In this document: one piece after another, positions 3,824 to 57,600 of the stretch
Layout: each line of letters begins with the position of its first letter
Numbering within the stretch: position 1 is the stretch's first letter
Origin: Planctomycetota bacterium
GTDB taxonomy: Bacteria > Planctomycetota > Phycisphaerae > Phycisphaerales > UBA1924
Direction of reading: 5' to 3'
Assembly (NCBI GenBank): GCA_014584315.1
Contig: JACTNA010000035.1
Span: forward strand, 62,001 to 126,000
DNA length: 64,000 bases
Translations under genes and position numbers: made by a program
The notes under the pieces: model-generated
The model's input: the letters and a program-made list of their open reading frames with translations, nothing else
Told to the model about the DNA's origin: nothing
Databases searched by the model: none

Positions 3824-6565
3824 ATGGCAAAGCGAGCGGCGAGTTCGGGCGGGCGGTCGGGTGCGCGGAGCGGCGCGGGCGCGTCCGGGCGTCGCCGCGG
3901 CTCGGGGCTTGGCTACAAGGCCGGCGACGCCAAGGGCCGGCACGTCGTCATCGTCGAAAGCCCATCGAAGGCGAAGACGATCAACAAGTACCTCGGCCCG
4001 GACTACATCGTCCTCCCGAGCGTCGGGCATGTCCGCGACCTGCCGAGCAAGGCCCCCAAGGGCGACAAGAGTCCCGTCCCCGGCGTGGACCTGAAGAAGA
4101 AGTTCCGCCCGACCTACGAGGTGCTCTCCGGCAAGGAGGGCGTGATCCGCGACCTGAAGGCCGCCGCGAAGGATGCCCGCGCCTCCGGTTGCGACGTCTG
4201 GTTCGCGACCGACCTCGACCGCGAGGGCGAGGCGATCGCCTGGCACCTCGCCGAGGAGCTGGGCATCGACCCGGCGCAGGCCCGTCGCGTGATGTTCGCG
4301 GCGATCACGAAGGCCGAGATCGAACGCGCCTTCCAGCACCCGCACCCGATCGACGTGGACAAGGTGAACGCCCAGCAGGCGCGGCGCATCCTCGACCGCA
4401 TCGTCGGCTACCAGGTCTCGCCGCTGCTGTGGAAGAAAGTCGCCCGGGGCTTGAGCGCGGGGCGCGTGCAGAGCGTCGCCGTGCGCCTCATCGTCGAGCG
4501 CGAGCGGGAGATCAGGGCGTTCGTGCCCGAGGAGTACTGGCAGGTCGAGGGCGTGTTTGCGCTGAGTGAGGATGACGCGCGCCGCCTCGGCCCCGCGTGG
4601 CGCGCCCTGCTGGACGAGCGCGACGCCAAGGGCAACCCCCCCACGGTCAAGGCCCAGAACGCATGGCTCGCCGAGAGCCGTCTGATCCGGGCGGAACTGG
4701 TGGAGGTCGCGGGCGAGAAGTTCGATGTGCGCACCGGTGAAGCGGGCACGGACCTGACGCCCCGCGTGCGGGCCGTCCTCGAGGCCGCGGGTCTGCGGCA
4801 GATCGAGGTCTCGACCGACGAGGACGCCGAAGGGCGCGGGCCGGCGCGCTGGCGGCGCACGGTGCGCGGCACGGCGGACCCCTCGACGCCGTACTCGGTG
4901 GCGGGCGTCGAGACGAAGCGCACGAGCGTGCGCCCGCCCGCCCCGTTCATCACGAGCACGCTGCAGCAGGCGGCGTCGAGCCGGCTGGGGTTCGCGGCGA
5001 GCCGCACGATGCGGGCCGCACAGCAGTTGTACGAGGGCGTCGAGATCCCCGGCGAGGGGCCGGTGGGCCTCATCACCTACATGCGAACGGACTCGACGCA
5101 CCTGGCGGCCGAGGCGGTGGCCGGCGTGCGCGACTACATCTCGCGCACGTTCGGCGGCAGGTACCTGCCGGGCAAGGCGAACGTGTACACCTCGTCGAAC
5201 AAGGCGGCGCAGGAGGCGCACGAGGCGATCCGCCCCGCGTCGCTCGACTACCCGCCGGAGCGGGTGCGGCGCGCGCTCAAACCCGACCTCTTCCGCCTCT
5301 ATGAACTGATCTGGAACCGCTTCGTGGCCTGCCAGATGACGCCGGCGGAGTGGGACTCGACGAGCGTCTCGATCGTGGGTGGAAAGGACGCTTCGAAGCG
5401 ACTGACCTTCCGCGCGACGGGGCGCACGCTCGCGTTCGACGGATTCTACCGCGTGGCGGGGGTGCCGACGGGGAGCGACGAGGCGACGCTGCCGCGCCTG
5501 GCCGAGGGGACCGCGCTGCGTCCCGCGTCGATCGACGCGCTGCAGCGATTCACCAGCCCGCCGGCGCGTTACTCGGAGGCGTCGCTCATCAAGACGATGG
5601 AGGCCGAGGGCATCGGGCGTCCGAGCACCTACGCGGACATCATCGCCAAGATCCAGGACCGCAAGTACGTGGAACTTGTCGGGCGGGCGTTCCACGCGAC
5701 CGACCTGGGCGAGGTGGTGACCGACAAGCTGGTCGAGGCGTTCCCGACCATCATGGACGTCGGCTACACGCGCGAGATGGAGGCGGAACTCGACAAGGTC
5801 GAGGAAGAGCACCTCGACTGGGTGGAGATGCTCCAGCGTTTCTACGGCCCGTTCAGCGAGAGCCTGGAGCGCGCCCACGAGGAACTCTCGCACGCCAAGG
5901 CCGAGGTGCAGCCCGCGCCGCCGGAGTACCGCTGCGAGAAGTGCGGCGCTGGGCTTGTGTACCGATTCGGGCGCAACGGGCGGTTCCTGAGTTGCTCGCG
6001 CTACCCCGAGTGCGAGTACGCCGCGCCGGTGGACCGGCAGGGCCGCCCGCGGACGGCCGAGTACGTGAACGTGCGCTGCCCGAAGACCGGCCGCGCGATG
6101 GTGCGCAAGACGGGCCGGTTCGGGCCCTTCCTGGCGACGCCGCTGGAGAAGGGCGAGAGCCAGGACGTGGGGATGATCCTGAACATCGACAAGAAGGGCC
6201 ACGTGACCGCGCCCGCGCCGCCGCCGCTGCTCACCGACCTGCTCTGCGAGAAGTGCGAGTCGCCGCTGAACCTGCGCGGCGGCATCCGCGGGCCGTGGCT
6301 CGGGTGCTCGCGGTTCCCGAAGTGCCGCGGGCGCGGCAAGTGGGCGGCGTTGCCCGAGGCGCAGCGGGCCGCGCTGGAGAAGGCGCTGGCGGCGCACGAG
6401 AAGGCGCACCCCGTTCCGATCATCCGCACGCTCGACGGCCGCCCGCTGACCGACGAGAAGGGCAAGCCGCTCGCGGACGCGCCGACCGTGGACCAGTTGG
6501 TGCTGGAGGGGGGCGAGGACGAGGCGGAACGCCTGGCGGCGCCGGGACGGGCGGCGGTGGCGTAG
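3824..6565 (+). CDS. topA: DNA topoisomerase I (type IA)
   Basis: TopA relaxes negative supercoils by transient cleavage of one strand. In this 913-residue protein the TOPRIM domain opens with VIVESPSKAKT near residue 42 and has the metal-binding DLDREGE near residues 130-136. The active-site tyrosine is Y419 in ITYMRTDST. The C-terminal region has a complete four-cysteine ribbon starting at C704, a middle repeat that lost its cysteines, and a second complete ribbon starting at C808. A Lys/Arg/Ser/Gly-rich N-terminal extension of about 35 residues precedes TOPRIM. ATG 3824 was chosen because the upstream in-frame extension is not conserved-looking. Confidence 0.95.
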   Translation: MAKRAASSGGRSGARSGAGASGRRRGSGLGYKAGDAKGRHVVIVESPSKAKTINKYLGPDYIVLPSVGHVRDLPSKAPKGDKSPVPGVDLKKKFRPTYEVLSGKEGVIRDLKAAAKDARASGCDVWFATDLDREGEAIAWHLAEELGIDPAQARRVMFAAITKAEIERAFQHPHPIDVDKVNAQQARRILDRIVGYQVSPLLWKKVARGLSAGRVQSVAVRLIVEREREIRAFVPEEYWQVEGVFALSEDDARRLGPAWRALLDERDAKGNPPTVKAQNAWLAESRLIRAELVEVAGEKFDVRTGEAGTDLTPRVRAVLEAAGLRQIEVSTDEDAEGRGPARWRRTVRGTADPSTPYSVAGVETKRTSVRPPAPFITSTLQQAASSRLGFAASRTMRAAQQLYEGVEIPGEGPVGLITYMRTDSTHLAAEAVAGVRDYISRTFGGRYLPGKANVYTSSNKAAQEAHEAIRPASLDYPPERVRRALKPDLFRLYELIWNRFVACQMTPAEWDSTSVSIVGGKDASKRLTFRATGRTLAFDGFYRVAGVPTGSDEATLPRLAEGTALRPASIDALQRFTSPPARYSEASLIKTMEAEGIGRPSTYADIIAKIQDRKYVELVGRAFHATDLGEVVTDKLVEAFPTIMDVGYTREMEAELDKVEEEHLDWVEMLQRFYGPFSESLERAHEELSHAKAEVQPAPPEYRCEKCGAGLVYRFGRNGRFLSCSRYPECEYAAPVDRQGRPRTAEYVNVRCPKTGRAMVRKTGRFGPFLATPLEKGESQDVGMILNIDKKGHVTAPAPPPLLTDLLCEKCESPLNLRGGIRGPWLGCSRFPKCRGRGKWAALPEAQRAALEKALAAHEKAHPVPIIRTLDGRPLTDEKGKPLADAPTVDQLVLEGGEDEAERLAAPGRAAVA

Positions 6566-6611
6566 GGCGTGCCCGATCGACTCCGCCCGCCGCGGCACGC
6601 CCCTACCGATC

Positions 6612-6617
6612 TACAAT
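6612..6617 (+). promoter_or_regulatory. -10 box of the PIN gene
   Basis: TACAAT ends 9 bp before the ATG at 6627, leaving little or no 5' leader. No matching -35 is obvious. Confidence 0.5.
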
Positions 6618-6626
6618 CGAGCCGTC

Positions 6627-7106
6627 ATGCGGACGGCATACGTCGAAACGACGATCCCGAGTTTCTTCGCGGAAACCCGCGAGACAGCGGCCGCGACCGC
6701 CTGGCGCGACGCGACGCGCCAGTGGTGGCCGCTCGCGATGCGGCGCTACCGACTCGTCACATCCCGGTTTGTGCTTGACGAGTTGTACGAGGCGCCCGAG
6801 CCGAAGCGATCGTCGGGACTGCGACTTCTTCGCGATGTCGAGATTCTCGATGAGCCGGCCGAGTTGGCGGACGTCGTATCCTTCTACATCGACCATCGAC
6901 TCATGCCCGCCGACGCGACGGGGGACGCGGTGCATCTTGCGATCGCGTCGCTGGCCAGGGTCGATTTCCTGGTGACCTGGAACCTCCGCCATCTCGCAAA
7001 CGCCAACAAGTTCCGGCACGTCGAAGTTCTCAACGCGCGGCTCGGACTTCCCACGCCGCTCATGGTGACCCCCTACGCCCTGCTCGCGGAGGACCCCGAT
7101 GATTGA
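6627..7106 (+). CDS. PIN-domain protein, VapC-like toxin candidate
   Basis: The 159-residue protein starts YVETTIPSFF (residues 5-14), the typical beta1 region of PIN ribonucleases with the first acidic residue as E7 rather than the usual D. It continues with SRFVLDELYEA (second acidic site) and ATGDAVHLAIASL (third acidic site, D near 112). PIN toxins cleave RNA in a Mg-dependent way. The gene overlaps the following small gene by 8 bp, so translation is coupled and the pair behaves like a type II toxin-antitoxin module, although here the toxin-like gene comes first. Base composition is a little less GC-extreme than topA, consistent with mobility. Confidence 0.75.
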   Translation: MRTAYVETTIPSFFAETRETAAATAWRDATRQWWPLAMRRYRLVTSRFVLDELYEAPEPKRSSGLRLLRDVEILDEPAELADVVSFYIDHRLMPADATGDAVHLAIASLARVDFLVTWNLRHLANANKFRHVEVLNARLGLPTPLMVTPYALLAEDPDD

Positions 7107-7302
7107 AAGACCAGGCGCCACGCCCGAAGCCCCGTCTCGATGGAGTGACCCGACCGTCGAGGAGGTCCGTCGAATCCGATCCCGCCTCTGGCAACGGGCC
7201 GACTGCGACGTCCGGCGCTACATCGAGCAAACACGAGAGCGTGTACGCGCCGCGACGCGGGTCGAGCAGCGTCCCGAACCGAACTCCGGCCGGCCCGCAT
7301 AG
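7099..7302 (+). CDS. Small partner of the PIN protein, possible antitoxin
   Basis: This 67-residue protein contains DPTVEEVRRIRSRLWQRA followed by a helix ending in an EQTR segment. This resembles short proteins often encoded just after PIN genes, with the pattern DPIVEEVRxxR. It overlaps the PIN gene by 8 bp at its ATG. It has no recognisable DNA-binding fold, so whether it neutralises the toxin directly or represses the promoter is unknown. It could also be an accessory protein with no antitoxin role. Confidence 0.6.
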   Translation: MIERPGATPEAPSRWSDPTVEEVRRIRSRLWQRADCDVRRYIEQTRERVRAATRVEQRPEPNSGRPA

Positions 7303-7312
7303 CCGGTATCTC

Positions 7313-7528
7313 GTGGATTGCTCGTGCGGGACCCACGCCGTGCTCTCTCGCGCACCGCTCTCGGGACTCATGCAGGGTACTACCCGCCCGCAACACGCAC
7401 GGATTGCAGTGGTTGTGGGGCCGAGGGGATACACAGCCACACCGCCCGCGCCCGCCGAAAAGGGGCATCGGTACTTCCGCGCGTGCGAATCGTGCGGGAA
7501 GAGCGTGTGCATCTGGATCGAGCAGTGA
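7313..7528 (+). CDS. Possible small zinc-ribbon-like protein
   Basis: A 71-codon frame from a GTG at 7313 encodes DCSCG near the start and RACESCGKSVCIWIEQ at the end, so two cysteine pairs about 50 residues apart could bind one zinc. No ribosome-binding site is visible. Third codon positions are less GC-biased than in neighbours, and the frame continues upstream inside the preceding gene. It may be real, a remnant, or chance. It fills the otherwise empty 297-bp gap before the EF-hand gene. Confidence 0.25.
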   Translation: MDCSCGTHAVLSRAPLSGLMQGTTRPQHARIAVVVGPRGYTATPPAPAEKGHRYFRACESCGKSVCIWIEQ

Positions 7529-7599
7529 AACCGCGGCGGCCCCCGGAGGAAGAAGGTCTGGGGGTGTCGGGCCGCTGACGGGGCGACCGGAGGTGCATC

Positions 7600-8997
7600 A
7601 TGCGGGTCTTGGCCGTGGTCGGGGGGGTGTGCCTGGTGATCGCCGCCGGGGCCGTGTGGCTCGTCGCGTCGCGCGGCGGGGGCGGTTCGGGCGCGGACGC
7701 GACCGAGGGGGTCGCGGGCCGCGGGGCTGCCGCTGCGAGCGGGGGCGGAGTCGCCTCGGGCGATGACGCCGGCCGGGCCGCCGAACGCGAGCGCGTGCTC
7801 GCGGAGTTGCGGGCCGAGTTGAGCCGGGCCGCGCCGGTCGCGGGACGGACGGACGATCAGCGGCTGGCGGACGCGCAGGCCTGGGTGCGTGCGAACCGCC
7901 CGGCCGACCGGCCCTACAACGACCTCGAAGCGACCATGCTCGCCCTCATGGAGGCCGCGTTCGACGGCGAGGAGCGGTCGGCCGCGTGGCTGATGAACAC
8001 CTCGCTCATCGAGATCGAGATCGCGCGGGCGCTGGACGCGGACGCCGACGGCATGGTCTCCGACGAAGAGGTGCGGGCCTTCATCGAGAGCGGGCTGAGC
8101 ATGATGAACCCGATGGAGCACCCGTACCTCGCGGCGTTGTTCGACCAGGACGGCGACGGCGTGCTCAGCCCCGGCGAGTTCGAGGCCGTCGGCGCGGCGC
8201 GCGTGATGGAGGGCGCGCTCGCCGGCGCGATGCAGCGCGCCCAGATCGACGCCTGGGACACGGACAACGACGGCTTTGTGAGCGACGCCGAGCGCGAGGC
8301 CGGGCTGCGGGCCGCTGACGGGCGGATCAGGCTGCACCCGGACGGGCGCGTCGAGTTCGTGAGCGACCCGACGGGGGTGGACCCCGCCGAGCAGGCCGCC
8401 GTGCGGGCTGAACTCGCCGAGCGGTTCGGCGAGGACTACGTGAAGACGCTCGATACCCACTGGGAGATGATGCGCACCCAGGCGCTCGTGATGCCGCTGC
8501 TCGACGGCATGCGCGTGGACGACTTCAGCCGCGAGGAGTTGCAGGCCATCGTGATGCGCGACATGCCGCAGATGCCCGACTCGCGCGAGTTCTCGGCGGA
8601 CGGGAGCGGGAACCTGACGCAGGAGGAGTTCGCGGTCTACCAGGGCGCGTTGGAGGAATACAACGCCGCGCTCCGCGAGTGGAGCGCGAAACAGACGGCC
8701 CTCGCGCTGCGCGAGCAGTTCGAGCACGCTCGCCGCCGGGGCGACCTCGACGGCGACGGGCGCATCTCCCCCGACGAGTGGGAACGCCGCATCGACACGC
8801 TGCTCGACGCGCGGGAGGAACGGCTCATGCTCCGCGTGCTGGACCTCGACGCCAACGGGTGGGTGGGCGCGCACGAGATCGCCCGCTACCTCGACTGGTA
8901 CCGCGCCGGGAGCCTGCGGGCGGACGCCAACTTCGACGGCACGATCGACGCCCGCGACCTCGAGATGGTGACGCGGTACGTCCAGACGAGGAAGTAG
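7600..8997 (+). CDS. Membrane-anchored protein with multiple EF-hand calcium loops
   Basis: The 465-residue protein has an N-terminal membrane segment or uncleaved signal (residues 3-25) and a Gly/Ala-rich linker. It then carries about seven EF-hand-like loops: DADADGMVSDEE, DQDGDGVLSPGE, DTDNDGFVSDAE, a degenerate ADGSGNLTQEE, DLDGDGRISPDE, DLDANGWVGAHE and DANFDGTIDARD. Such proteins bind calcium outside the cytoplasm; the partner is unknown. The start is fixed by GGAGG 6 bp before ATG 7600. It is common in Planctomycetota to see EF-hand and dockerin-like loops in secreted proteins, and two dockerin-like proteins also occur in this window. Confidence 0.75.
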   Translation: MRVLAVVGGVCLVIAAGAVWLVASRGGGGSGADATEGVAGRGAAAASGGGVASGDDAGRAAERERVLAELRAELSRAAPVAGRTDDQRLADAQAWVRANRPADRPYNDLEATMLALMEAAFDGEERSAAWLMNTSLIEIEIARALDADADGMVSDEEVRAFIESGLSMMNPMEHPYLAALFDQDGDGVLSPGEFEAVGAARVMEGALAGAMQRAQIDAWDTDNDGFVSDAEREAGLRAADGRIRLHPDGRVEFVSDPTGVDPAEQAAVRAELAERFGEDYVKTLDTHWEMMRTQALVMPLLDGMRVDDFSREELQAIVMRDMPQMPDSREFSADGSGNLTQEEFAVYQGALEEYNAALREWSAKQTALALREQFEHARRRGDLDGDGRISPDEWERRIDTLLDAREERLMLRVLDLDANGWVGAHEIARYLDWYRAGSLRADANFDGTIDARDLEMVTRYVQTRK

Positions 8998-9075
8998 GCG
9001 TGCGAGGGGTGCGATGGCCCCGGAGGGATCGCCTTGTGGATCGCTCCCAAGTAGCCGATGGATTCTCGGCAGTAC

Positions 9076-9120
9076 ACCCGCCGGGCCTCTGCATTCGCAC
9101 GCTCACTTCGGCGGGTTTTT
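9076..9120 (+). terminator. Possible terminator after the EF-hand gene
   Basis: ACCCGCC (9076-9082) can pair with GGCGGGT (9110-9116), followed by TTTTT. The loop of 27 nt is long, so this is a moderate candidate only. Confidence 0.35.
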
Positions 9121-9161
9121 CGTTGTGACCTGCGCCGAGCGTCCCGCCGGAGTCAGGGCCG

Positions 9162-9167
9162 TACACT
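9162..9167 (+). promoter_or_regulatory. -10 box of the ABC-2 permease gene
   Basis: TACACT ends exactly 6 bp before ATG 9174, which would put the transcription start on or next to the A of the start codon. Confidence 0.5.
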
Positions 9168-9173
9168 CTGCCC

Positions 9174-11021
9174 ATGCCCGTCTTCCTCCGCTGGCTCCTG
9201 CGGCTCGGCCCGACGAACCCGATCGCGGTGCGCCTGGTGCAGAACGGCTCGCGCCGCACCCGCCACCTCTACATCCGGGCCGCGTACCTCGCCGTGCTGA
9301 TCGTCGTGCTGCTCTGGCTGCTGCTCGTCTCCGCCGGGGGCGGGAACCTCGACTACCGCGAACTGGCCCGCGCCGGGGCGATGAGTTTCACGTCGATCGC
9401 GTACCTCCAGATCGGCCTGATCTGCATCCTCGCGCCGGTCTTCATGGCCGGGGCGATCGCGCAGGAGTCCAACCCGCGCACGTGGGAGGTCATGCTCACC
9501 ACGCCGCTGAGCGCGACGCAGATCGTGCTCGGCAACCTGCTCGGGCGGCTCTTCTTCATCATCGCCCTGCTCATGGCGAGCCTGCCGCTCTTCGCCCTCG
9601 TGCAGTACTTCGGGGGCGTGCCGGGGCGGACGATCCTCGCCAGTTACCTGGTCGCGGCGTGCGCGGCCGTCCTCGTCGGCACCATCGCCATCGCGCTCTC
9701 GGTGAGCCGCCTCGTCGGGCGTCGGGCGGTCTTCGCGTTCTATGTTTCGGTCGTCTCCTACCTCGCCATCACCGCGGCGATCGACTCGTGGGTGCGGCTC
9801 TCCGGGGGCGGCGCGGGGGGGGGCAACGGCGTCACCTGGATGACGCCCATCAATCCGTTCCTCACCCTGCACGCGCTCCTGAACCCGACCGCCTACCCGC
9901 GTGCCGACGAGACCGGCCCGTGGGCGCTGCGGCACCCCGTCAACGCCTGGTGCTGGGGGAGCGTCCTCCTGAGCGTCGCCCTCGCCCTCGCCAGCACGCT
10001 CACCGTGCGCACCGGCGGCCTGCAGATGATCGCGGGACAGTCCGGCGGCGTGCCGTGGTACAGGCGCATGTTCGGCCTGGGCGCGAGCGGGGCGGAGCAC
10101 CGCCCGCCGCGCCATGTCTGGACGAACCCGATCGCCTGGCGCGAGGCCGCCGCACGCAACAGCACGCTCGGGCGCATCGTCGCGCGGTGGTCGTTCATCG
10201 CGGCGGGCGCGGCCTGGGGCATCGGGCTGGTGTGGATGTTCCACGCGGGGCGCTTCACCAACGCCGACTTCCGGCTCGCGCTCCTCTTCACCACTATCGG
10301 CGAGCTGGCGGTCGTCGCGCTGGTGGCCGTCAACATGTCCGCCACGTCCATCAGCCGTGAGCGAGAGGACGGCACGCTGGACCTGCTGCTGACGACGCCG
10401 ATCACGCCCGCGGAGTATCTCTCGGGCAAGCTGCGCGGCCTGATCGCCTACCTCCTGCCGCTCATGGCCGTCCCTCTTGGGACGCTCGCGCTCGCGGGGG
10501 TGTACGTGCTGACGGGCGGGCTGGGGCGCGCGGGGGGGGTGACGGAGACCGTGCAGCAGGCGGGCGGCGCGCCCGCCATCACCGCGCCGATCGTGCTTCC
10601 CGAGGCCGGGCTGGTCGCGTCGCTCGTGGTCGTGCCGTTCGTCGCCTTCTGCGCCATCGTCGGCATGCACTGGTCGCTCAAGAGCAAGGGCACGATATCG
10701 AGCGTCGTGGCGACCGTGGGCGTGGTCGGCGCGATCAGCGGCGTGATCGGGCTGTGCGGGTGGCGCGCGGGCGTGGACGCGAGCCTGATCGGCCCGATCA
10801 TGGCCGGGCTCAGCCCCGCCTCCGCCGTCTTCGCGCTCGTCGCGCCGATGGAGGCGATGGACTCGACCGTGCGAGGCTCGGGCGTGCAGGCCGCGCGGGT
10901 CATGCTCCTCGTCGGCAGCGTCTGCGCCGCCGGCCTCTACGCGGCGATCGTCTACGGCGTCCACTCCTACACGGTGAAGAACTTCGACTTCATCGTGCGA
11001 CGACTGGCGGGAGTGAAATGA
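9174..11021 (+). CDS. ABC-2 type transporter permease
   Basis: This 615-residue integral membrane protein has hydrophobic segments near residues 35-55, 75-98, 120-145, 160-190 and several more toward the end. The segment SREREDGTLDLLLTTPIT near the middle and the earlier QESNPRTWEVMLTTPLS are the hallmark cytoplasmic motif of ABC-2 permeases (ExGTLxLLLTTP), here present twice. It probably is a fused or duplicated half-permease. No ATP-binding subunit is adjacent, so its ATPase must lie elsewhere. It overlaps the next gene by 4 bp, suggesting translational coupling. The substrate is unknown. Confidence 0.75.
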   Translation: MPVFLRWLLRLGPTNPIAVRLVQNGSRRTRHLYIRAAYLAVLIVVLLWLLLVSAGGGNLDYRELARAGAMSFTSIAYLQIGLICILAPVFMAGAIAQESNPRTWEVMLTTPLSATQIVLGNLLGRLFFIIALLMASLPLFALVQYFGGVPGRTILASYLVAACAAVLVGTIAIALSVSRLVGRRAVFAFYVSVVSYLAITAAIDSWVRLSGGGAGGGNGVTWMTPINPFLTLHALLNPTAYPRADETGPWALRHPVNAWCWGSVLLSVALALASTLTVRTGGLQMIAGQSGGVPWYRRMFGLGASGAEHRPPRHVWTNPIAWREAAARNSTLGRIVARWSFIAAGAAWGIGLVWMFHAGRFTNADFRLALLFTTIGELAVVALVAVNMSATSISREREDGTLDLLLTTPITPAEYLSGKLRGLIAYLLPLMAVPLGTLALAGVYVLTGGLGRAGGVTETVQQAGGAPAITAPIVLPEAGLVASLVVVPFVAFCAIVGMHWSLKSKGTISSVVATVGVVGAISGVIGLCGWRAGVDASLIGPIMAGLSPASAVFALVAPMEAMDSTVRGSGVQAARVMLLVGSVCAAGLYAAIVYGVHSYTVKNFDFIVRRLAGVK

Positions 11022-12558: not shown

Positions 12559-14202
12559 TCAGAACGCCTCGAACCCCCCCCTCGACGCGTACTCGAAACT
12601 GTTGATCGCCTGCACCTGCTCGGCGGACTTCCCCGCCAGCGCCCCGAATCGCTCGATCAGCGGCCTCGGGCTGTCGGTCGCCAGCGACGCCAAGAGGCTG
12701 AACTTGTGCTCGAGCAGGCCGCGCAGGTCCGCGGTCGTGTTCCGCGCGTGCCCCGCCGGGTACATCACCAGCCCCGAGTCGTGCCGCTCCCCCGCGTCGT
12801 CCGTGATGACCACGCTGGTCGGGATGCCGTCCGGGTAGCGCCGGTCGTACTCCGGCCCGCCGTGCACGAAGTCGATCCGGGCCATGATCTCGCGCGTGCG
12901 CGGGTTGAAGACCGCGTCCTTCGAGTAGTCCAGCGGGCTGAGCATCAGGCCCTTCCAGTCGGTCGCCCGGCCCGCGGCCCGGTTCTCCAGCGCCTTGCGC
13001 AGCAGCGTGGCGATGATGTACGCCATCGAGTGGTCCGCGCTCTGGCGGGTCTTCGGGTCCTTCTTCGCCGGGTCGCCGATGATGCCGAACGCCGGCTCGT
13101 ACGCCACGATCCGCACCGATCGGATCGCCGACCCGTCCGCCCGATCGAGCAACCCGGGACGCTTGGCGATCAGGTCCACGACGGCCTGCACCGCGCCAGC
13201 CGACTGATGCTCGTAGAGCGCGAGCTTGAAGTGCATCCCAATGACCGCGAAGTCGCCCCCCGCGCGCGCGAGCACGAGTTCGAACGGCGAGGCGTCCCGC
13301 TTCTCGGTGTCGGGGGTCTCGACCGCGCCGACGCGCTGGAACATCTGCCCCGGCCCCTCGAAGAGCCGGAAGACGGCCTCGGGGTTGCGGAAGACGTCGC
13401 GCGGCCCCTGGAACCCGCCCATGCTCCGCTTCAGGCTCAGGATGGCCGCCTCTGTGCTGATCGCCGCGGACGCCCCCTTGCTGTCCGAGAGTTGCTTGCC
13501 GGCGCGGATCGCGCGGAAGGGCACGTAGTGCGCCACCACCATGCCGATCGCGCTCTCGATCTGCTCGGCCGTCGCGCCGACCATCGCGCCGAACACGCAC
13601 GCCGACGCGATCGCCCCGTGCAGCACGTGGTCGATCTTGCAGTCCTTGAGGCTGAAGACCTCGGCCAGCCTGCCGCGGATCTCGTCATGCAGGACCATCC
13701 CGCGCAGGGCCGTCGCCCCGTCCGCCCCGAGCATCTGGGCCGCGGCCAGGGGCACGGCGTAGAAGTCGTTGTGCCCGAACTCGCCGGCCGTGTGCCCGCG
13801 CCCGGGGTTGTAGCCGAAGTTGGTCCCGTTCGCGTCCCACTCGCGCACCGCGGCGCAGTTGGCGACGATCGCCTTCTCGCTCTTGACGCGCACCGGCGAG
13901 CCGAAGACGGTCGCCCCGTGCCGCGTGCACCGGCCGAGCGGCCTGCCCGTGTGCCCCTCGGGCACCGCGTACTCGAACGCCTCGCGCCGCAGCACGTTGG
14001 GCGCGTTGCACCCCATCGCCAACGCACTGACGCCGCACAGGCACGCGTCGGTGAAGAAGAGGTTGGTGCGTTCCAGCACGCCCGCGTCAGGCTCGCCGCG
14101 CACGCCCGGCCCGCCCCACATGAAGTCGATCGCGTACCGCGCCAGCCCGAGGGCCTGGTTGGTGTCGGCGGGAAGAACAACACACGGCTGCTCGGCGGGC
14201 AT
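12559..14202 (-). CDS. MmgE/PrpD family protein (2-methylcitrate dehydratase-like)
   Basis: This 547-residue protein belongs to the MmgE/PrpD family, whose best-known members dehydrate 2-methylcitrate in propionate catabolism. Recognisable parts are DAxLCGVSALAMG near the N-terminus, the central HGAIASACVFGAMVGATAEQ, and the late FVHGGPEYDRRYPDGIPTS that matches the C-terminal MmgE region. It is longer than the usual 450-490 residues. No prpB or prpC lies nearby, so the substrate is uncertain. A GGAG sequence about 10 bp before ATG 14202 supports the start. It is divergent from the CRISPR effector gene, 87 bp away. Confidence 0.8.
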   Translation of the reverse strand: MPAEQPCVVLPADTNQALGLARYAIDFMWGGPGVRGEPDAGVLERTNLFFTDACLCGVSALAMGCNAPNVLRREAFEYAVPEGHTGRPLGRCTRHGATVFGSPVRVKSEKAIVANCAAVREWDANGTNFGYNPGRGHTAGEFGHNDFYAVPLAAAQMLGADGATALRGMVLHDEIRGRLAEVFSLKDCKIDHVLHGAIASACVFGAMVGATAEQIESAIGMVVAHYVPFRAIRAGKQLSDSKGASAAISTEAAILSLKRSMGGFQGPRDVFRNPEAVFRLFEGPGQMFQRVGAVETPDTEKRDASPFELVLARAGGDFAVIGMHFKLALYEHQSAGAVQAVVDLIAKRPGLLDRADGSAIRSVRIVAYEPAFGIIGDPAKKDPKTRQSADHSMAYIIATLLRKALENRAAGRATDWKGLMLSPLDYSKDAVFNPRTREIMARIDFVHGGPEYDRRYPDGIPTSVVITDDAGERHDSGLVMYPAGHARNTTADLRGLLEHKFSLLASLATDSPRPLIERFGALAGKSAEQVQAINSFEYASRGGFEAF

Positions 14203-14289: not shown

Positions 14290-16734
14290 ATGACCGCGGC
14301 GGCCACCGACACGCCCATTCGTACTCGCTACAAGGAGTCTCGGACGCTTGTACGCCGGCTCTGCCGTCTGCCCCACGAGGGCCGCGAGGACTACAGGCGC
14401 AAGGTCTCCCTGCTGCGCGAGCACTTCGAGCGGTTCAACGCCGACACCGCGGGACTCTGCCAGTGGCTGATGGGCCTGCGCAAGCGCGCGGGAGACGAGG
14501 CCCATCCGGAGACGTTCGGCACGCTCGGGGACTTCCTGCTCGAACCCGCGTTGCTCGGTGTCGAGGCGGACGAAACCGAGCGCGACCGCTGGCGTCTTGC
14601 CGTCTTCGACCACGTCGCCGGCTTCCGGTCCGTCGAGACCATCGCAGGTCGCCCCATCCCCGACGGCCTGCGCCGGGCGATGGACGACGCCGCGGCGCAC
14701 GCCCCGCGCCGCGACCCTCTCAACCTCGCCGCGGCCAGGCTCTTCGATCGACTCGCCGCGCTCGACCGCGCCCACCGCCTCGTGCTCCTCAAGTCCGCCG
14801 CCGAGTGGGTCGTCGCACGCTACAAGCGCGGCGTCGAGAACTGGATCCGCCAGCGGGCCGCGTGGGAGCAGGAGCGCGACGAGTGGGAACGCGCCCACCC
14901 CGAACTCACGCCGGAGGCCCGCGAGCGGTTCACGGACGTCTACCGCACGCTCCTCGACCCGGAGCGCGACGACAGACCCGGCATCCGGCGCAAGGCCCCG
15001 CGCATCTGCTCATGGGAGCGCCTGCGACAGAACATCGACGACTGCTGGTACGGCCAGAAGGGGCACGGCCCGCTCTGCTGGAAGTACGGGGAGTTCGTGA
15101 GGGCACGGAAGGAGGCGAACCCCAAGTTCAATGACAAGCGATTCTGGGAGGACGCCGATCGGCTCGTCCGCTACTGCGCAGAGAAGTGCGTGAAGCCGCA
15201 CAATGTCTTTCTCAGCCCGAGCATGCCGCGCATTCTGTTCAAGGACGTGCCGGAACGCGAGGGACCTCAGGCGATGACGCGCCTCAAAACGAACTGGAAC
15301 GCCTACCTCAAGCACATGGAACTCAACCCGGAGACCGTCGTCCGGCACGGGCGCCTCCCCCACTGCCCGAAGATCGGCGGCAAGGTCTTCGAGAAGTCCG
15401 ACTGCGTCTGGAACCCCCACACCGAGTTGTGCCAGCGATACCGGCGCACGGCCTCGCAACTCCCGGATGCCCTCCTCGCCCTCGAAGAGCAGTACCGCGA
15501 GTGGCGCAGGCTCTACCTCGCCGGCCCGCGCAAGCCGACCTTCGTCTACCCCTCCGCCCGAGACCTGCCCATGCCCAAGGTCTTCGGCGAGGGCTTCCAC
15601 CAGATCGACCTCGACCGCGCCGTCGTCCGCCTCCGCCTGGAAGGCTCGCCGCAGGGCGAGTGGGTCGAGTTCGGGTTCACCCCCTGGCCGCGAGGGTACC
15701 GCCCGTCCAAACGCGAAGTCGCCATCACCAGCGTCCACGTCCACTTCGTCGGCGCTCGCCCGCGCGTCGGCTTCCGCTTCGACGCGCCCCACAAGCCCGC
15801 CCGCTTCGCCTGCTCGCAGGACGAACTCCAACTCCTGCGCAGCCGCGAGTTCCCACGCCGGGCGCAGGACCAGCGGTTCATCGACGCCGCCCGACGCCGC
15901 CTGCTCGAATCCTTCAACGGCGACCCGGAGCGCGACCTGCGACTCCTCGCCGTCGATCTCGGCGAGAAGGGCGCACACGCCGCCGTCTACCGCGGACGCA
16001 CCCACGAGCGTGATATCGCCCTGAAGATCGTCAAGATCAACGCCCTCTACGACTCCGTGCCCGACAGGCTCGTCCCGTGCGACAAAGATCCGAAACGCAA
16101 GCAGCGACCCGCGAAGACCGAGTTCGACCGAACGCACGACCCTCGCGGCCTGCGCAAGGAGCACCTCGCCCGACACCTCGAACGCCTCGCCGAGGGCGCG
16201 ATCGAGATCGCCGAGCACAGGCAGCGCGAGGGCGAGCCGGCCCCGAAGCCCGCCGCCCACGACCAGCGCGGCCTCCAGCGCCACGCCGCCTGGATGATCC
16301 GCGACTGGGCCAGGCTCAACGCCGCCCAGGTCATCGCCGCAGCCGAGGAGCACCGCTGCGACCTCATCGTCTTCGAGAGTCTGCGGGGCACCCGCCCCCC
16401 CGCCTACGACAAACTCGGCGACGACGCCGAACGCAAGAAGCGGTCCGCCGCCATGCACGCCTACGGCCGGGTCCGCGCCAAGGTCACCGAGAAAGCCGTC
16501 GAGCGCGGCATGCGCGTCGTCACCGCCCCCTACCACGACTCCTCGCACGTTTGCTCGGCCTGCGGCGCGCCGCAGGAGAACCGCGGCCTGTTCAACAAGA
16601 ACAAGGGCAAGCGGAAGTTCGTCTGCGAAAAGTGCACGCGGGAGATGAACAGCGACGCCAACGCCGCCCGCGTCCTCGCCCGCGTCTTCTGGGGCGAGAT
16701 CACGCTCCCCGCCCCCAAGCCGGGCGTGGGCTGA
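14290..16734 (+). CDS. Compact type V CRISPR effector (Cas12-like, RuvC nuclease), subtype unassigned
   Basis: The 814-residue protein has a TnpB-like C-terminal nuclease. RuvC-I is LLAVDLGEKGAH with D556, and RuvC-II is DLIVFESLRG with E696. A four-cysteine ribbon follows (C755, C758, C779, C782), and RuvC-III is MNSDANAARVL with D789. All three catalytic acidic residues are present, so it should be an active nuclease. Residues 1-550 lack a motif I know and presumably hold the REC and WED domains; the region 430-500 is beta-rich. It is followed by a tracrRNA-like gene and a CRISPR array, with no cas1, cas2 or cas4. Size and dual-RNA layout recall Cas12l, Cas12b, Cas12e or Cas12f, but I cannot place it by reading. 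A stray TnpB is unlikely given the array and large N-terminus. Confidence 0.88.
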   Translation: MTAAATDTPIRTRYKESRTLVRRLCRLPHEGREDYRRKVSLLREHFERFNADTAGLCQWLMGLRKRAGDEAHPETFGTLGDFLLEPALLGVEADETERDRWRLAVFDHVAGFRSVETIAGRPIPDGLRRAMDDAAAHAPRRDPLNLAAARLFDRLAALDRAHRLVLLKSAAEWVVARYKRGVENWIRQRAAWEQERDEWERAHPELTPEARERFTDVYRTLLDPERDDRPGIRRKAPRICSWERLRQNIDDCWYGQKGHGPLCWKYGEFVRARKEANPKFNDKRFWEDADRLVRYCAEKCVKPHNVFLSPSMPRILFKDVPEREGPQAMTRLKTNWNAYLKHMELNPETVVRHGRLPHCPKIGGKVFEKSDCVWNPHTELCQRYRRTASQLPDALLALEEQYREWRRLYLAGPRKPTFVYPSARDLPMPKVFGEGFHQIDLDRAVVRLRLEGSPQGEWVEFGFTPWPRGYRPSKREVAITSVHVHFVGARPRVGFRFDAPHKPARFACSQDELQLLRSREFPRRAQDQRFIDAARRRLLESFNGDPERDLRLLAVDLGEKGAHAAVYRGRTHERDIALKIVKINALYDSVPDRLVPCDKDPKRKQRPAKTEFDRTHDPRGLRKEHLARHLERLAEGAIEIAEHRQREGEPAPKPAAHDQRGLQRHAAWMIRDWARLNAAQVIAAAEEHRCDLIVFESLRGTRPPAYDKLGDDAERKKRSAAMHAYGRVRAKVTEKAVERGMRVVTAPYHDSSHVCSACGAPQENRGLFNKNKGKRKFVCEKCTREMNSDANAARVLARVFWGEITLPAPKPGVG

Positions 16735-16757
16735 CCCCGCCCAGGCCCGACGCGGGG
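16735..16757 (+). terminator. Hairpin directly after the effector stop codon
   Basis: CCCCGC (16735-16740) pairs with GCGGGG (16752-16757), loop 11 nt, followed by GTTG rather than a T-run. It may end or protect the effector mRNA. It overlaps the upstream edge of the tracrRNA promoter. Confidence 0.35.
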
Positions 16758-16758
16758 G

Positions 16759-16787
16759 TTGCTCCGCGCCCGGAACGTCGGTATCAT
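16759..16787 (+). promoter_or_regulatory. Promoter of the tracrRNA-like gene
   Basis: TTGCTC (16759-16764) and TATCAT (16782-16787) are separated by 17 bp. They match sigma70 consensus at 4/6 and 5/6 positions. The predicted start is about 16794. This is the best classical -35/-10 pair I see in the window and it precedes no protein gene. Confidence 0.6.
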
Positions 16788-16793
16788 CCGGTC

Positions 16794-16912
16794 GCTTCGA
16801 GTCATATGCCCGGAATACGCCCGGCGGACCGTTGGACCAACGGGATGGACCCCAGGCACGAAGCAAAAGTCTCGATGCTGCGGTCAGATGCACGGCCGTC
16901 TTCCAGGTTTTT
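16794..16912 (+). ncRNA. Candidate tracrRNA with anti-repeat
   Basis: Positions 16871-16893 match the reverse complement of the CRISPR repeat (repeat bases 2-24) at 19 of 23 positions. Two of the four differences become G-U pairs, so 21 of 23 bases can pair with a crRNA transcribed on the plus strand. Upstream is a tight hairpin, CCGTTG-gac-CAACGG (16829-16843). Downstream is TTTTT at 16908-16912 as a likely 3' end. Hairpins first, anti-repeat near the 3' end and a short T-run is the layout I know from type V tracrRNAs such as that of Cas12b. Exact ends are inferred, giving a length of about 119 nt. Confidence 0.65.
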
Positions 16913-16964
16913 GGAGGGCGATTCGGGCGCAAAGTCTTGTGGAGCAACGACTTACGCTCGGTCC

Positions 16965-17527
16965 GGTGCGCCTGGCCGCAGAATCGAGGCTCCCGACACC
17001 TTCTCTTTGGGGACCGTGACCATCGCCGGGGTGCGCCTGGCCGCAGAATCGAGGCTCCCGACACCAGCAGCGCCCGCGTCGCGTCGTCGATCGCGGGTGC
17101 GCCTGGCCGCAGAATCGAGGCTCCCGACACCACATTGTTTGACAGGCCTCCGGTGAGAGTTGGTGCGCCTGGCCGCAGAATCGAGGCTCCCGACACCAGG
17201 GCGACGCCGGCGACACGCGAGCCCTGCGGTGCGCCTGGCCGCAGAATCGAGGCTCCCGACACCAGCTCCTTTGCGTTGTTCCCGCGGGCGGCGGGTGCGC
17301 CTGGCCGCAGAATCGAGGCTCCCGACACCCCTCCGGGGAGAGTTTGATCCCTAAGGATCGGTGCGCCTGGCCGCAGAATCGAGGCTCCCGACACCCTGCC
17401 GGTCTACTGGGCCTGCATCCGCAACGGTGCGCCTGGCCGCAGAATCGAGGCTCCCGACACCTAGCACCAGCACTTGCCGCCGGACTGACCGGGTGCGCCT
17501 GACCGCAGAATCGAGGCTCCCGACGCT
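16965..17527 (+). CRISPR. CRISPR array: nine 36-bp repeats, eight spacers
   Basis: Repeats start at 16965, 17030, 17096, 17162, 17228, 17294, 17360, 17426 and 17492. The first eight are identical (GGTGCGCC...CCGACACC). The ninth differs at base 11 (G to A) and in its last bases (GACGCT for GACACC). Spacers are 30 nt except the first (29 nt), and all are different. The degenerate repeat lies at the far end from the effector, so the leader is on the effector side and transcription runs on the plus strand. The repeat 5' half can pair with the anti-repeat at 16871-16893. No adaptation genes are in the window. Confidence 0.97.
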
Positions 17528-17575
17528 GGGCTGGGAGTGTGATGCGAACGGTGGAGTGGTGCGCGTGGGCGCGGG

Positions 17576-18009
17576 GTCAAACGGATCGTGGGGCGTCCTC
17601 GCGCATCGGGTGCCCCGCTGCGCCGCGGCGGCTGCGGCTCGTGCGTCTCTCCTGCCGCTCGTGCGCGTCCCACAGCTCGCATGACGGCCTTCTCATCCGG
17701 TGCCCGGGCACCGTCCCCCAGCCCGAAGGGCTGCTCGTTCGTAGCCGGGGGTGGAGGAGGCTTTGCGACGACACCCCCGGGACACGCGGCCCACCCTTCC
17801 CCTTCCCTCTTGGTTCCGCAGCCCGAAGGGCTGCTCGTGCCGCGCACACGCCGGAGCCACGATGACTCGTTCGGAGTCCGATGGCTGGTGTGCCCAGGTC
17901 CGGGGGTCTCGCTCGAAGACTCGCACGACCCCCGGCTACTGACGGCACAGCCCTTCGGGCTGGAGCAATGGCGCAGCCCATCGGGCTGAAGTCAAACGGA
18001 TCGTGGGGC
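17576..18009. repeat. Composite structured repeat, copy A, flanked by a 19-bp direct repeat
   Basis: This 434-bp stretch fills the gap between the array and the CPBP gene. It contains CAGCCCGAAGGGCTG palindromes at 17719, 17819 and (as CAGCCCTTCGGGCTG) 17948, a variant at 17974, and long hairpins with arms CCGGGGGTG/CACCCCCGG (17745-17780) and CCGGGGGTC/GACCCCCGG (17900-17935). A small hairpin, GACTC-GTTCG-GAGTC, lies at 17864-17878. An inverted homologous copy lies at 57161-57600. The 19-mer GTCAAACGGATCGTGGGGC occurs at both ends (17576-17594 and 17991-18009). It codes for no convincing protein. Confidence 0.8.
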
Positions 18010-18014
18010 CCCCT

Positions 18015-18647
18015 TCACCCCCCCCGCCCGCTGTAGAAGTGCTCGCCCAGGCCGATCGTGAAGATCAGGCACCCGTAGAGCGCGTGCTCGACCGACACGG
18101 CCAGGGCCGAGCGTGTGCGGGCGTAGGTCGCCGCGAAGAGGAGGCCGCCGGCGAGGGTCATCGCCACCGCGATCCAGTTGTGGAAGACGACGTGGACAAG
18201 GCCGAACGCGAGTGCGCTGGCGGCGACCATCGTGCTCGGGCGGGGGAACAGCGCGGCGTAGCGGTGGAAGAAGAAGACGCGGAAGATCACCTCCTGCGGG
18301 TAGACGCTCACGAGCGGGTAGAGCAGCATGATCGTCGCCCACAGTTCCGGGCGACGCCGCGGGAGCGAGAACAGCGACTCGGCGTCGAAGACCGCGACCG
18401 CCAGCCCGATCGCCGCGCCCAGCGGCACGAAAGCCGCCGCGACGCGCCCGCCCGCCCGGAGCGCGCCCCGCGCGTTCCACAACCGCCGCCGGTCGAACGA
18501 CGCATCGCGCAGCAGCAGCCACAGGCACGCCGCCGCCCACGCCCAGAGCGCGGGGAAGAGCCACCCCGGCCCCGGGTCGAGCGCGGCGTAGAGCGTCGGC
18601 CCGGCGACGAACATGGCGAGCAGTTCAGCGGCGCGGGCCTTGGGCAT
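18015..18647 (-). CDS. CPBP family intramembrane metalloprotease
   Basis: The 210-residue protein has about six hydrophobic segments and the three CPBP motifs: QEVIFRVFFF near residue 117 (the usual EExxxR with Q replacing the first E), FGLVHVVFHN near residue 148, and SVEHALYG near residue 188. The family comprises CAAX-processing or bacteriocin-protection-type membrane proteases. The change of the first glutamate might affect activity, though the second glutamate and both histidine motifs are intact. It starts 9 bp after the mscS-like gene on the same strand, so both probably form one operon. Confidence 0.8.
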   Translation of the reverse strand: MPKARAAELLAMFVAGPTLYAALDPGPGWLFPALWAWAAACLWLLLRDASFDRRRLWNARGALRAGGRVAAAFVPLGAAIGLAVAVFDAESLFSLPRRRPELWATIMLLYPLVSVYPQEVIFRVFFFHRYAALFPRPSTMVAASALAFGLVHVVFHNWIAVAMTLAGGLLFAATYARTRSALAVSVEHALYGCLIFTIGLGEHFYSGRGG

Positions 18648-57042: not shown

Positions 57043-57160
57043 CCGCGCACCCGGCGCACTCCATCGAACGCTCGTTCGTTGAGGATGAAGTGGATAGGTG
57101 AGCCGCCAAGGGGCGGCGGGACACCCGGGGCGCGGGGACGTCACACGATCCGCATGACTT

Positions 57161-57600
57161 CAGCCCGAAGCGATGCGCCGTGACTCCAGCCCGAAGGGCT
57201 GTGCCGTCCCTTCAGCCCGAAGGGCTGCGTTGTGTCTTCAGCCCGAAGGGCTGTGTCGTCAGTAGCCGGGGGTCGAGCGAGTCTTCGAGCGAGACCCCCG
57301 GATCGTCGGCGCACCAGGCATCGGACCCCGACGGGGTCATCGTGGTCAACACGCGCGCGCCACGAGCAGCCCTTCGGGCTGCCGAGCCAAACGGAAAGAG
57401 ATGTGGGGGCCGCGCGTTCCGGGGGTGTCGTCGAAGAGCCTCCTCCACCCCCGGCTACGAACGAGCAGCCCTTCGGGCTGGGGAACTGTCGCGGTGCGCC
57501 GGATCAGGAAGCTGACATACGGGCTGTGGGACGTGCTTTCGCGATGGTAGAGGCGGAAGAAACGGAGCCGCCACGGAGTGGCGGGGTACCCGATCGTCCT
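57161..57600. repeat. Composite structured repeat, copy B, inverted relative to copy A
   Basis: This copy has CAGCCCGAAGGGCTG at 57187, 57213 and 57239, and CAGCCCTTCGGGCTG at 57367 and 57466. Long hairpin arms are CCGGGGGTC/GACCCCCGG (57266-57301) and CCGGGGGTG/CACCCCCGG (57419-57454). GACCC-CGACG-GGGTC (57324-57338) replaces GACTC-GTTCG-GAGTC of copy A with compensatory stem changes. Read in reverse, the order and spacers match 17595-17990, including a homologous end (CGTCCCACAG...). It lies between a secreted protein gene and the M20 gene. Confidence 0.8.

What the first reader, a model, noticed from the sequence alone, without database searches (positions are those of the whole stretch)
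14290..17527. Stand-alone compact type V CRISPR locus with an unassigned Cas12-like effector
Seen: an 814-residue protein with D556, E696 and D789 in RuvC motifs and a CxxC...CxxC ribbon, followed 230 bp later by a nine-repeat array. Known: Cas12 effectors share this nuclease half, while their N-terminal halves are subtype-specific. Inferred: the N-terminal 550 residues match nothing I recognise, so the protein may belong to a rare or new subtype. Size, tracrRNA and a GC-rich host make Cas12l the closest guess from memory. The RuvC spacing (140 and 93 residues) is compact, near TnpB-like proteins.
Basis: partly seen in the sequence, partly recalled or inferred. Interest (0 to 1): 0.95.

Follow-up and report, generated by a model that had tools for sequence, protein, structure and literature searches.

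The report
A known-type RNA-cutting CRISPR system (Cas12g)
This is a complete CRISPR locus of an already described kind, type V-G, whose protein Cas12g uses a guide RNA to find and cut RNA; it is not a new CRISPR subtype, although finding it at one fixed chromosomal site in two related species is useful.

Summary
The 814-residue protein (window 14290-16734, +) is Cas12g, the type V-G effector. It matches the PADLOC Cas12g profile end to end (1018.9 bits; best other type 55.7) and solved Cas12g chains over residues 9-809 (E 8e-189; 48% identity). The "unrecognised" N-terminal half is covered. The catalytic triad and all 12 zinc ligands of Cas12g1 are kept, and the predicted fold matches the four Cas12g entries first. 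A 26-nt anti-repeat at 16868-16893 marks a tracrRNA between gene and array; in 9 of 10 Cas12g loci the anti-repeat pairs best with its own repeat (0 of 200,000 permutations as good). The array has nine 36-nt repeats and eight 29-30-nt spacers, the layout reported in PMC10707612. Most likely mechanism: guide-directed RNA cleavage with collateral RNase and ssDNase activity, inferred from Cas12g1. Extras: a same-genus genome holds an 80% identical orthologue at the same site with different spacers; the site is empty in some family members; the only cas1 detected lies in a distant type II locus. Verdict: new member of a known kind.

The parts
14290..16734 (+). cas12g, 814 aa; RuvC triad D556/E696/D789; zinc ligands C240, C252, H259, C263, C359, C372, H377, C381, C755, C758, C779, C782
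16759..16787 (+). possible promoter of the tracrRNA, TTGCTC - 17 nt - TATCAT (8 of 12 consensus bases; below the scanner's threshold)
   Evidence: read from the sequence; the promoter scan found none
16794..16896 (+). predicted tracrRNA (ends approximate): block aligned across 9 loci, then the anti-repeat
   Evidence: position agrees with the Cas12g locus of PMC10707612
16868..16893 (+). anti-repeat, 21 of 26 bases complementary to the repeat (G-U pairs not counted)
   Evidence: swap tests
16894..16964 (+). presumed leader of the array
   Evidence: position only; the degenerate repeat lies at the other end
16965..17527 (+). CRISPR array: nine 36-nt repeats GGTGCGCCTGGCCGCAGAATCGAGGCTCCCGACACC (last one degenerate), eight spacers of 29-30 nt

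Best explanation
A chromosomal type V-G CRISPR-Cas locus. Shown here by sequence: a full-length Cas12g with an intact active site and zinc fingers, a tracrRNA anti-repeat matched to its own repeat, and an array of 36-nt repeats and 29-30-nt spacers. Inferred from published work on Cas12g1: crRNA and tracrRNA pair (maturation probably by host RNase III, whose gene is present); the guide-loaded Cas12g binds complementary RNA without a PAM, the lid over RuvC opens, and it cuts the target RNA and, once activated, other RNA and single-stranded DNA. This probably defends against phages or mobile elements through their transcripts. If spacers are still acquired, Cas1-Cas2 must act in trans, since the only cas1 detected in the genome belongs to a type II locus on another contig.
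For: PADLOC Cas12g 1018.9 and 938.9 bits, best other type 55.7; solved Cas12g E 8e-189 over 9-809; triad, 12 of 12 zinc ligands and lid R, P, P, Y kept (against residues listed in PMC10511118); fold search: the four Cas12g entries first at 1e-44 to 5e-40, fifth row 7e-10, Z 23-28 against 15.8 for the best other row; anti-repeat and swap tests; same layout in 8 of 8 loci of the profile scan and in G397; RNase III in 2 of 2 genomes searched. Published behaviour: RNA-guided RNase, PAM-free, tracrRNA-dependent, collateral RNase and ssDNase (Introduction of PMC10511118; Results of PMC10707612).
Against: No activity was tested. Three of four Nuc-domain lysines and two lid residues important in Cas12g1 (E666, N667) align to other residues (the Nuc alignment is uncertain there). 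No spacer target was found. The promoter scan found no site. Model confidence is moderate (pLDDT 77.2, pTM 0.54).
Confidence: 0.95

Rival explanations
1. A new or rare type V subtype (or Cas12l), probably with DNA as its target.
For: It is compact, needs a tracrRNA, and lies in a GC-rich genome; NCBIfam and Pfam give it no Cas12g name, only C-terminal Cas12f/TnpB-like hits.
Against: End-to-end match to Cas12g by profile, by pairwise search and by fold. In the tree Cas12g1 stands outside one Planctomycetota clade, but four other loci branch off as well, so no separate deep branch of its own is supported (midpoint root, fork support 78/94).
Confidence: 0.02
2. A decaying or non-adapting V-G locus: the effector is intact but the array no longer gains spacers and protection is residual.
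For: No cas1 match in the genome apart from the type II locus; cas1 found in 4 of 10 genomes with a Cas12g locus and not in the same-genus genome G397, 98% complete. A relative, L025, has an in-frame stop. Only eight spacers.
Against: Open frame with all catalytic and zinc residues; eight identical internal repeats; orthologue 80% identical and open with no near-identical spacer in common, so spacers changed after the split or were lost and regained.
Confidence: 0.15

Closest known systems
Cas12g1, hot-spring metagenome (PDB 6xmf, 6xmg, 8i16, 8i3q)
   Same: Full-length homology, triad, three zinc fingers, fold, tracrRNA use
   Different: 48.4% identity over 737 aligned residues; 814 against 767 aa; some lid and Nuc residues differ
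Cas12g locus of the Karmadon thermal spring (PMC10707612)
   Same: cas12g, tracrRNA region, then an array of 36-nt repeats and 30-nt spacers just downstream
   Different: 768 aa, ten repeats, probable Terriglobia host; sequence not compared here
Cas12g loci found here: G397 and L024-L031
   Same: Gene, tracrRNA region and array in the same order; window, G397 and L024-L027 form one clade, support 100/100
   Different: 80% identity for G397, 56-61% for L024-L027, 45-52% for L028-L031; repeats differ

Membership tests
Type V-G / Cas12g | Full-length match to the Cas12g family, far above other Cas12 types | tested here: met
   1018.9 bits against 55.7 for the best other type; E 8e-189 to the solved protein
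Type V-G / Cas12g | RuvC D/E/D triad | tested here: met
   D556, E696, D789 align to D513, E655, D745 (of these numbers only D513 was seen in a paper passage)
Type V-G / Cas12g | Two zinc fingers in Helical 1 and one in Nuc | tested here: met
   12 of 12 ligands listed in PMC10511118 kept
Type V-G / Cas12g | tracrRNA with an anti-repeat between gene and array | tested here: met
   by sequence only, no transcript data
Type V-G / Cas12g | Array just downstream of the gene, 36-nt repeats and about 30-nt spacers | tested here: met
Type V-G / Cas12g | PAM-free RNA-guided RNase with collateral RNase and ssDNase | not testable with these tools
   needs an assay; reported for Cas12g1 and the Karmadon enzyme
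   no Cas12l profile or sequence was used; no listed hit bears that name; the assignment to Cas12g makes it unnecessary
TnpB / Cas12f | Match above the family's curated cut-off over the whole protein | tested here: not met
   Cas12f2 48.8 against 450 bits, guided_TnpB 36.9 against 100, residues 670-800 only; only Pfam's TNB domain passes, 725-795

The most novel reading that the evidence does not exclude
In this genus an RNA-cutting V-G system has been kept at one chromosomal site while its spacers turned over, and in this genome its spacers are supplied by the Cas1-Cas2 of an unrelated type II locus elsewhere (same 36 + 30 geometry, unlike repeat): in-trans adaptation of an RNA-targeting class 2 system.
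Probability: 0.2. Interest if true: 0.45.

Novelty: new member of a known kind. Interest (0 to 1): 0.2.

Why it matters
The two Cas12g enzymes whose papers I looked at come from hot-spring metagenomes. Here ten loci, eight of them in Planctomycetota, give matched effector, tracrRNA and repeat sets for comparing guide recognition, and one orthologous pair at a fixed site in which spacer turnover can be studied. It offers another enzyme of a known RNA-cutting kind, not a new kind of immunity.

Tried and rejected
New subtype or Cas12l: rejected.

TnpB/Cas12f kinship from the compact RuvC: only the C-terminal part matches, below the NCBIfam cut-offs.

Protospacers: the whole array against phages (best E 0.6) and plasmids (best listed E 0.1, 15 of 94 records shown) gave only weak, short matches. 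Against the own genome, spacer 2 was compared with five of the matching places: best 5 mismatches of 30. Six of eight spacers were scanned as exact 20-22-mers in viral contigs: 5 of 6 gave nothing, spacer 1 one contig, but that match ends after 21 nt (7 of 29 mismatches), so it is not called a target. Arrays of three other loci (G397, L024, L031) against phages: two weak hits and none, best E 0.6.

Spacer 6 contains a 13-mer like the 16S rRNA 5' primer site (recalled); probably chance, not tested.

Cas12g in viral contigs or plasmids: none found. The phage collection was not searched with the protein.

The type II repeat is not similar to the V-G repeat (707 and 549 of 1000 shuffles as good).

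A first single-sequence scan of genome contigs found no relative; the profile scan found eight. A Cas1 of G449 lies on a 22-kb contig (C16), not on the 89.8-kb scaffold of that genome's cas12g, so it is not beside it.

Five large ORFs elsewhere in the window gave no PADLOC match; some of these long frames may not be genes.

Full report
Observation. The ORF at 14290-16734 (+) encodes 814 residues with D556, E696, D789 and CxxC pairs at 755/758 and 779/782. The array begins 230 nt after its stop codon: nine 36-nt repeats at 16965-17527, the last degenerate, with eight spacers, one of 29 and seven of 30 nt. The repeat core is found nowhere else in the assembly at up to 3 mismatches. The window is G000:C3:62001-126000 of a 3.33-Mb assembly in 36 contigs, 97% complete.

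Identity of the effector. PADLOC's two Cas12g profiles match at 1018.9 bits (residues 11-808) and 938.9 bits; the best other type, Cas12b, scores 55.7. phmmer against solved structures gives the Cas12g chains (6xmf/6xmg, 8i16, 8i3q) at E 8e-189 to 1e-187 from residue 9 to 809-810; the next chain, named a transposase, has E 2e-4 over residues 723-797. NCBIfam and Pfam show only C-terminal Cas12f/TnpB-like hits and no Cas12g-named match. Mapped on Cas12g1, the triad and all 12 ligands of the three zinc fingers listed in PMC10511118 (passages) are kept, as are lid residues R661, P662, P663 and Y665; E666 and N667 are D and K, and three of the four Nuc lysines tested there align to other residues. 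AlphaFold2 on the window protein and seven natural homologues gives pLDDT 77.2 and pTM 0.54. Foldseek's first four rows are the four Cas12g entries (1e-44 to 5e-40; fifth row 7e-10), and VIA-align gives them Z 23-28 (rmsd 7-9, 573-612 residues aligned) against 15.8 for the best other row.

Guide RNA. A 26-nt segment at 16868-16893 is complementary to the repeat at 21 of 26 bases. Gaps between gene and array from 9 loci (for L029 only the last 223 nt) align, with a shared block upstream of the anti-repeat. With the whole gap as target, own repeats bind best in 5 of 9 rows (the others rank 2, 2, 4 and 6; for L024 and L025 the best duplex lies outside the anti-repeat), and 1 of 200,000 permutations of partners is as good. 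With 32-nt windows placed at the aligned anti-repeat in 10 loci, own repeats are best in 9 of 10 rows and 0 of 200,000 permutations are as good; without G397, 2 of 200,000, not far from the 0.6 expected from drawing the true order itself. The exception, G397, pairs better with two other repeats (-36.8 and -33.2 against -32.3 kcal/mol). By column, own is best in 7 of 10. The windows were placed by hand from the alignment. In L028 identity alone showed no anti-repeat (score 14 against 20 for the opposite-strand control; L025 tied at 22), though the duplex test favours its own repeat. Strand and position agree with PMC10707612, which reports a tracrRNA between cas12g and the array (Results section). 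The promoter scan found no site; by eye there is TTGCTC-17-TATCAT at 16759-16787.

Relatives. A profile scan of GTDB contigs gave 8 loci: Planctomycetota L024, L025, L026 and L031, Phycisphaerales L027, Ca. Brocadiia L028 (the last two are Planctomycetota too by the labels), Hydrogenedentota L029 and Nitrospinota L030. L028 is the contig of G031, and the G208 stretch lies inside L031. Since G031 and G208 share the window's phylum, the host is a member of Planctomycetota. All 8 have an array downstream of the gene. In the phylum sample 3 of 392 genomes, the own one included, have Cas12g (G397 was not in that sample); in the genus 2 of 3, the third being 89% complete. In an 11-row tree the window, G397 and L024-L027 form one clade (100/100) with Cas12g1 outside it (midpoint root, deep forks weak).

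Genomic site. The neighbours are a MmgE/PrpD gene (12559-14202, -) and a CPBP/Rce1-like protease gene (18015-18647, -). G397, same genus, carries a Cas12g 80% identical between the same two genes, with nine clear repeats and a degenerate tenth. Of six other family stretches fetched, none holds Cas12g: in G394 and G413 the two genes lie about 90 and 160 nt apart, in G396, G447 and G431 1.4, 2.1 and 3.2 kb apart, and in G405 the protease gene was not found. So the locus was probably gained at this site before the two species split, or lost in the others. The two arrays share no near-identical spacer. The one resemblance is between leader-distal spacers, 19 of 30 identical, reached by 5 of 5000 shuffles, perhaps an old shared end.

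Adaptation. cas1 was found once in the genome, on contig C9, between genes for Cas9 and Cas2 that match type II models, followed by an array with 36-nt repeats and spacers of 29 and 30 nt that is cut by the contig end. cas2 was not searched for genome-wide. Of 10 genomes with a Cas12g locus, cas1 was found in 4, and not in G397 (98% complete). So supply in trans is possible here but not general at present. G000 and G397 both have RNase III, which fits the report that Cas12g does not process its own pre-crRNA in vitro (Introduction of PMC10511118).

Mechanism. Shown: anatomy, homology, conserved active site and guide pairing. Inferred from Cas12g1: RNA-guided, PAM-free RNA cleavage with collateral RNase and ssDNase. 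Unknown: the targets; PMC10707612 also could not establish the origin of its spacers.

Literature. I ran searches for 'Cas12g' (56 papers, 30 listed), 'Cas12g' with 'Planctomycet' (4 papers) and V-G/adaptation terms (40 papers, 15 listed). PMC10707612 (outline and Results read) already names Planctomycetota among the nearest homologues, so even this host group is not new for Cas12g. PMC12669027 was seen in passages only. The original 2019 description of type V-G is recalled, not read.

Verdict. An ordinary but complete member of type V-G. Its interest lies in the orthologous pair at one site and the set of matched tracrRNA-repeat pairs, not in novelty of kind.

Noticed in passing
L013 (G000:C9:95000-104683): 3981-8018, 8061-9080, 9071-9400, array from 9450 to the contig end: Type II CRISPR locus in the same genome: Cas9 (1345 aa), Cas1, Cas2 and an array of at least four 36-nt repeats with 29-30-nt spacers, cut by the contig end.
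   Followed up: partly
window about 17574-18014; also window about 57144-57594 and loci L091-L098: Dispersed repeat of about 400 nt with palindromes AGCCCGAAGGGCT between the V-G array and the protease gene; pieces of it match at 76-91% in 9 of 9 further places examined, in L097 only over 33-35 nt. The 14-mer occurs 34 times in the genome, reversed-pattern control 0. An 18-nt direct repeat flanks the window copy (17576-17593 and 17991-18008). G397 has only 161 nt in place of window 17525-18014, so this looks like an inserted element.
   Followed up: partly
L025 10154-10156: The PLA2 Cas12g homologue has an in-frame stop codon near its N terminus: a pseudogene or a sequencing error.
   Followed up: no
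L024 12181-12576: The fourth and fifth spacers of the BroJett003 Cas12g array recur as the eighth and ninth: a duplication inside the array or an assembly artefact.
   Followed up: no
window 17462-17491 and L073 (reverse strand): The leader-distal spacer of the window and the eighth spacer of G397 are 19 of 30 identical (5 of 5000 shuffles reach this), and both terminal repeats share GCCTGACCGCA: the distal ends may be homologous, drifting remnants.
   Followed up: partly
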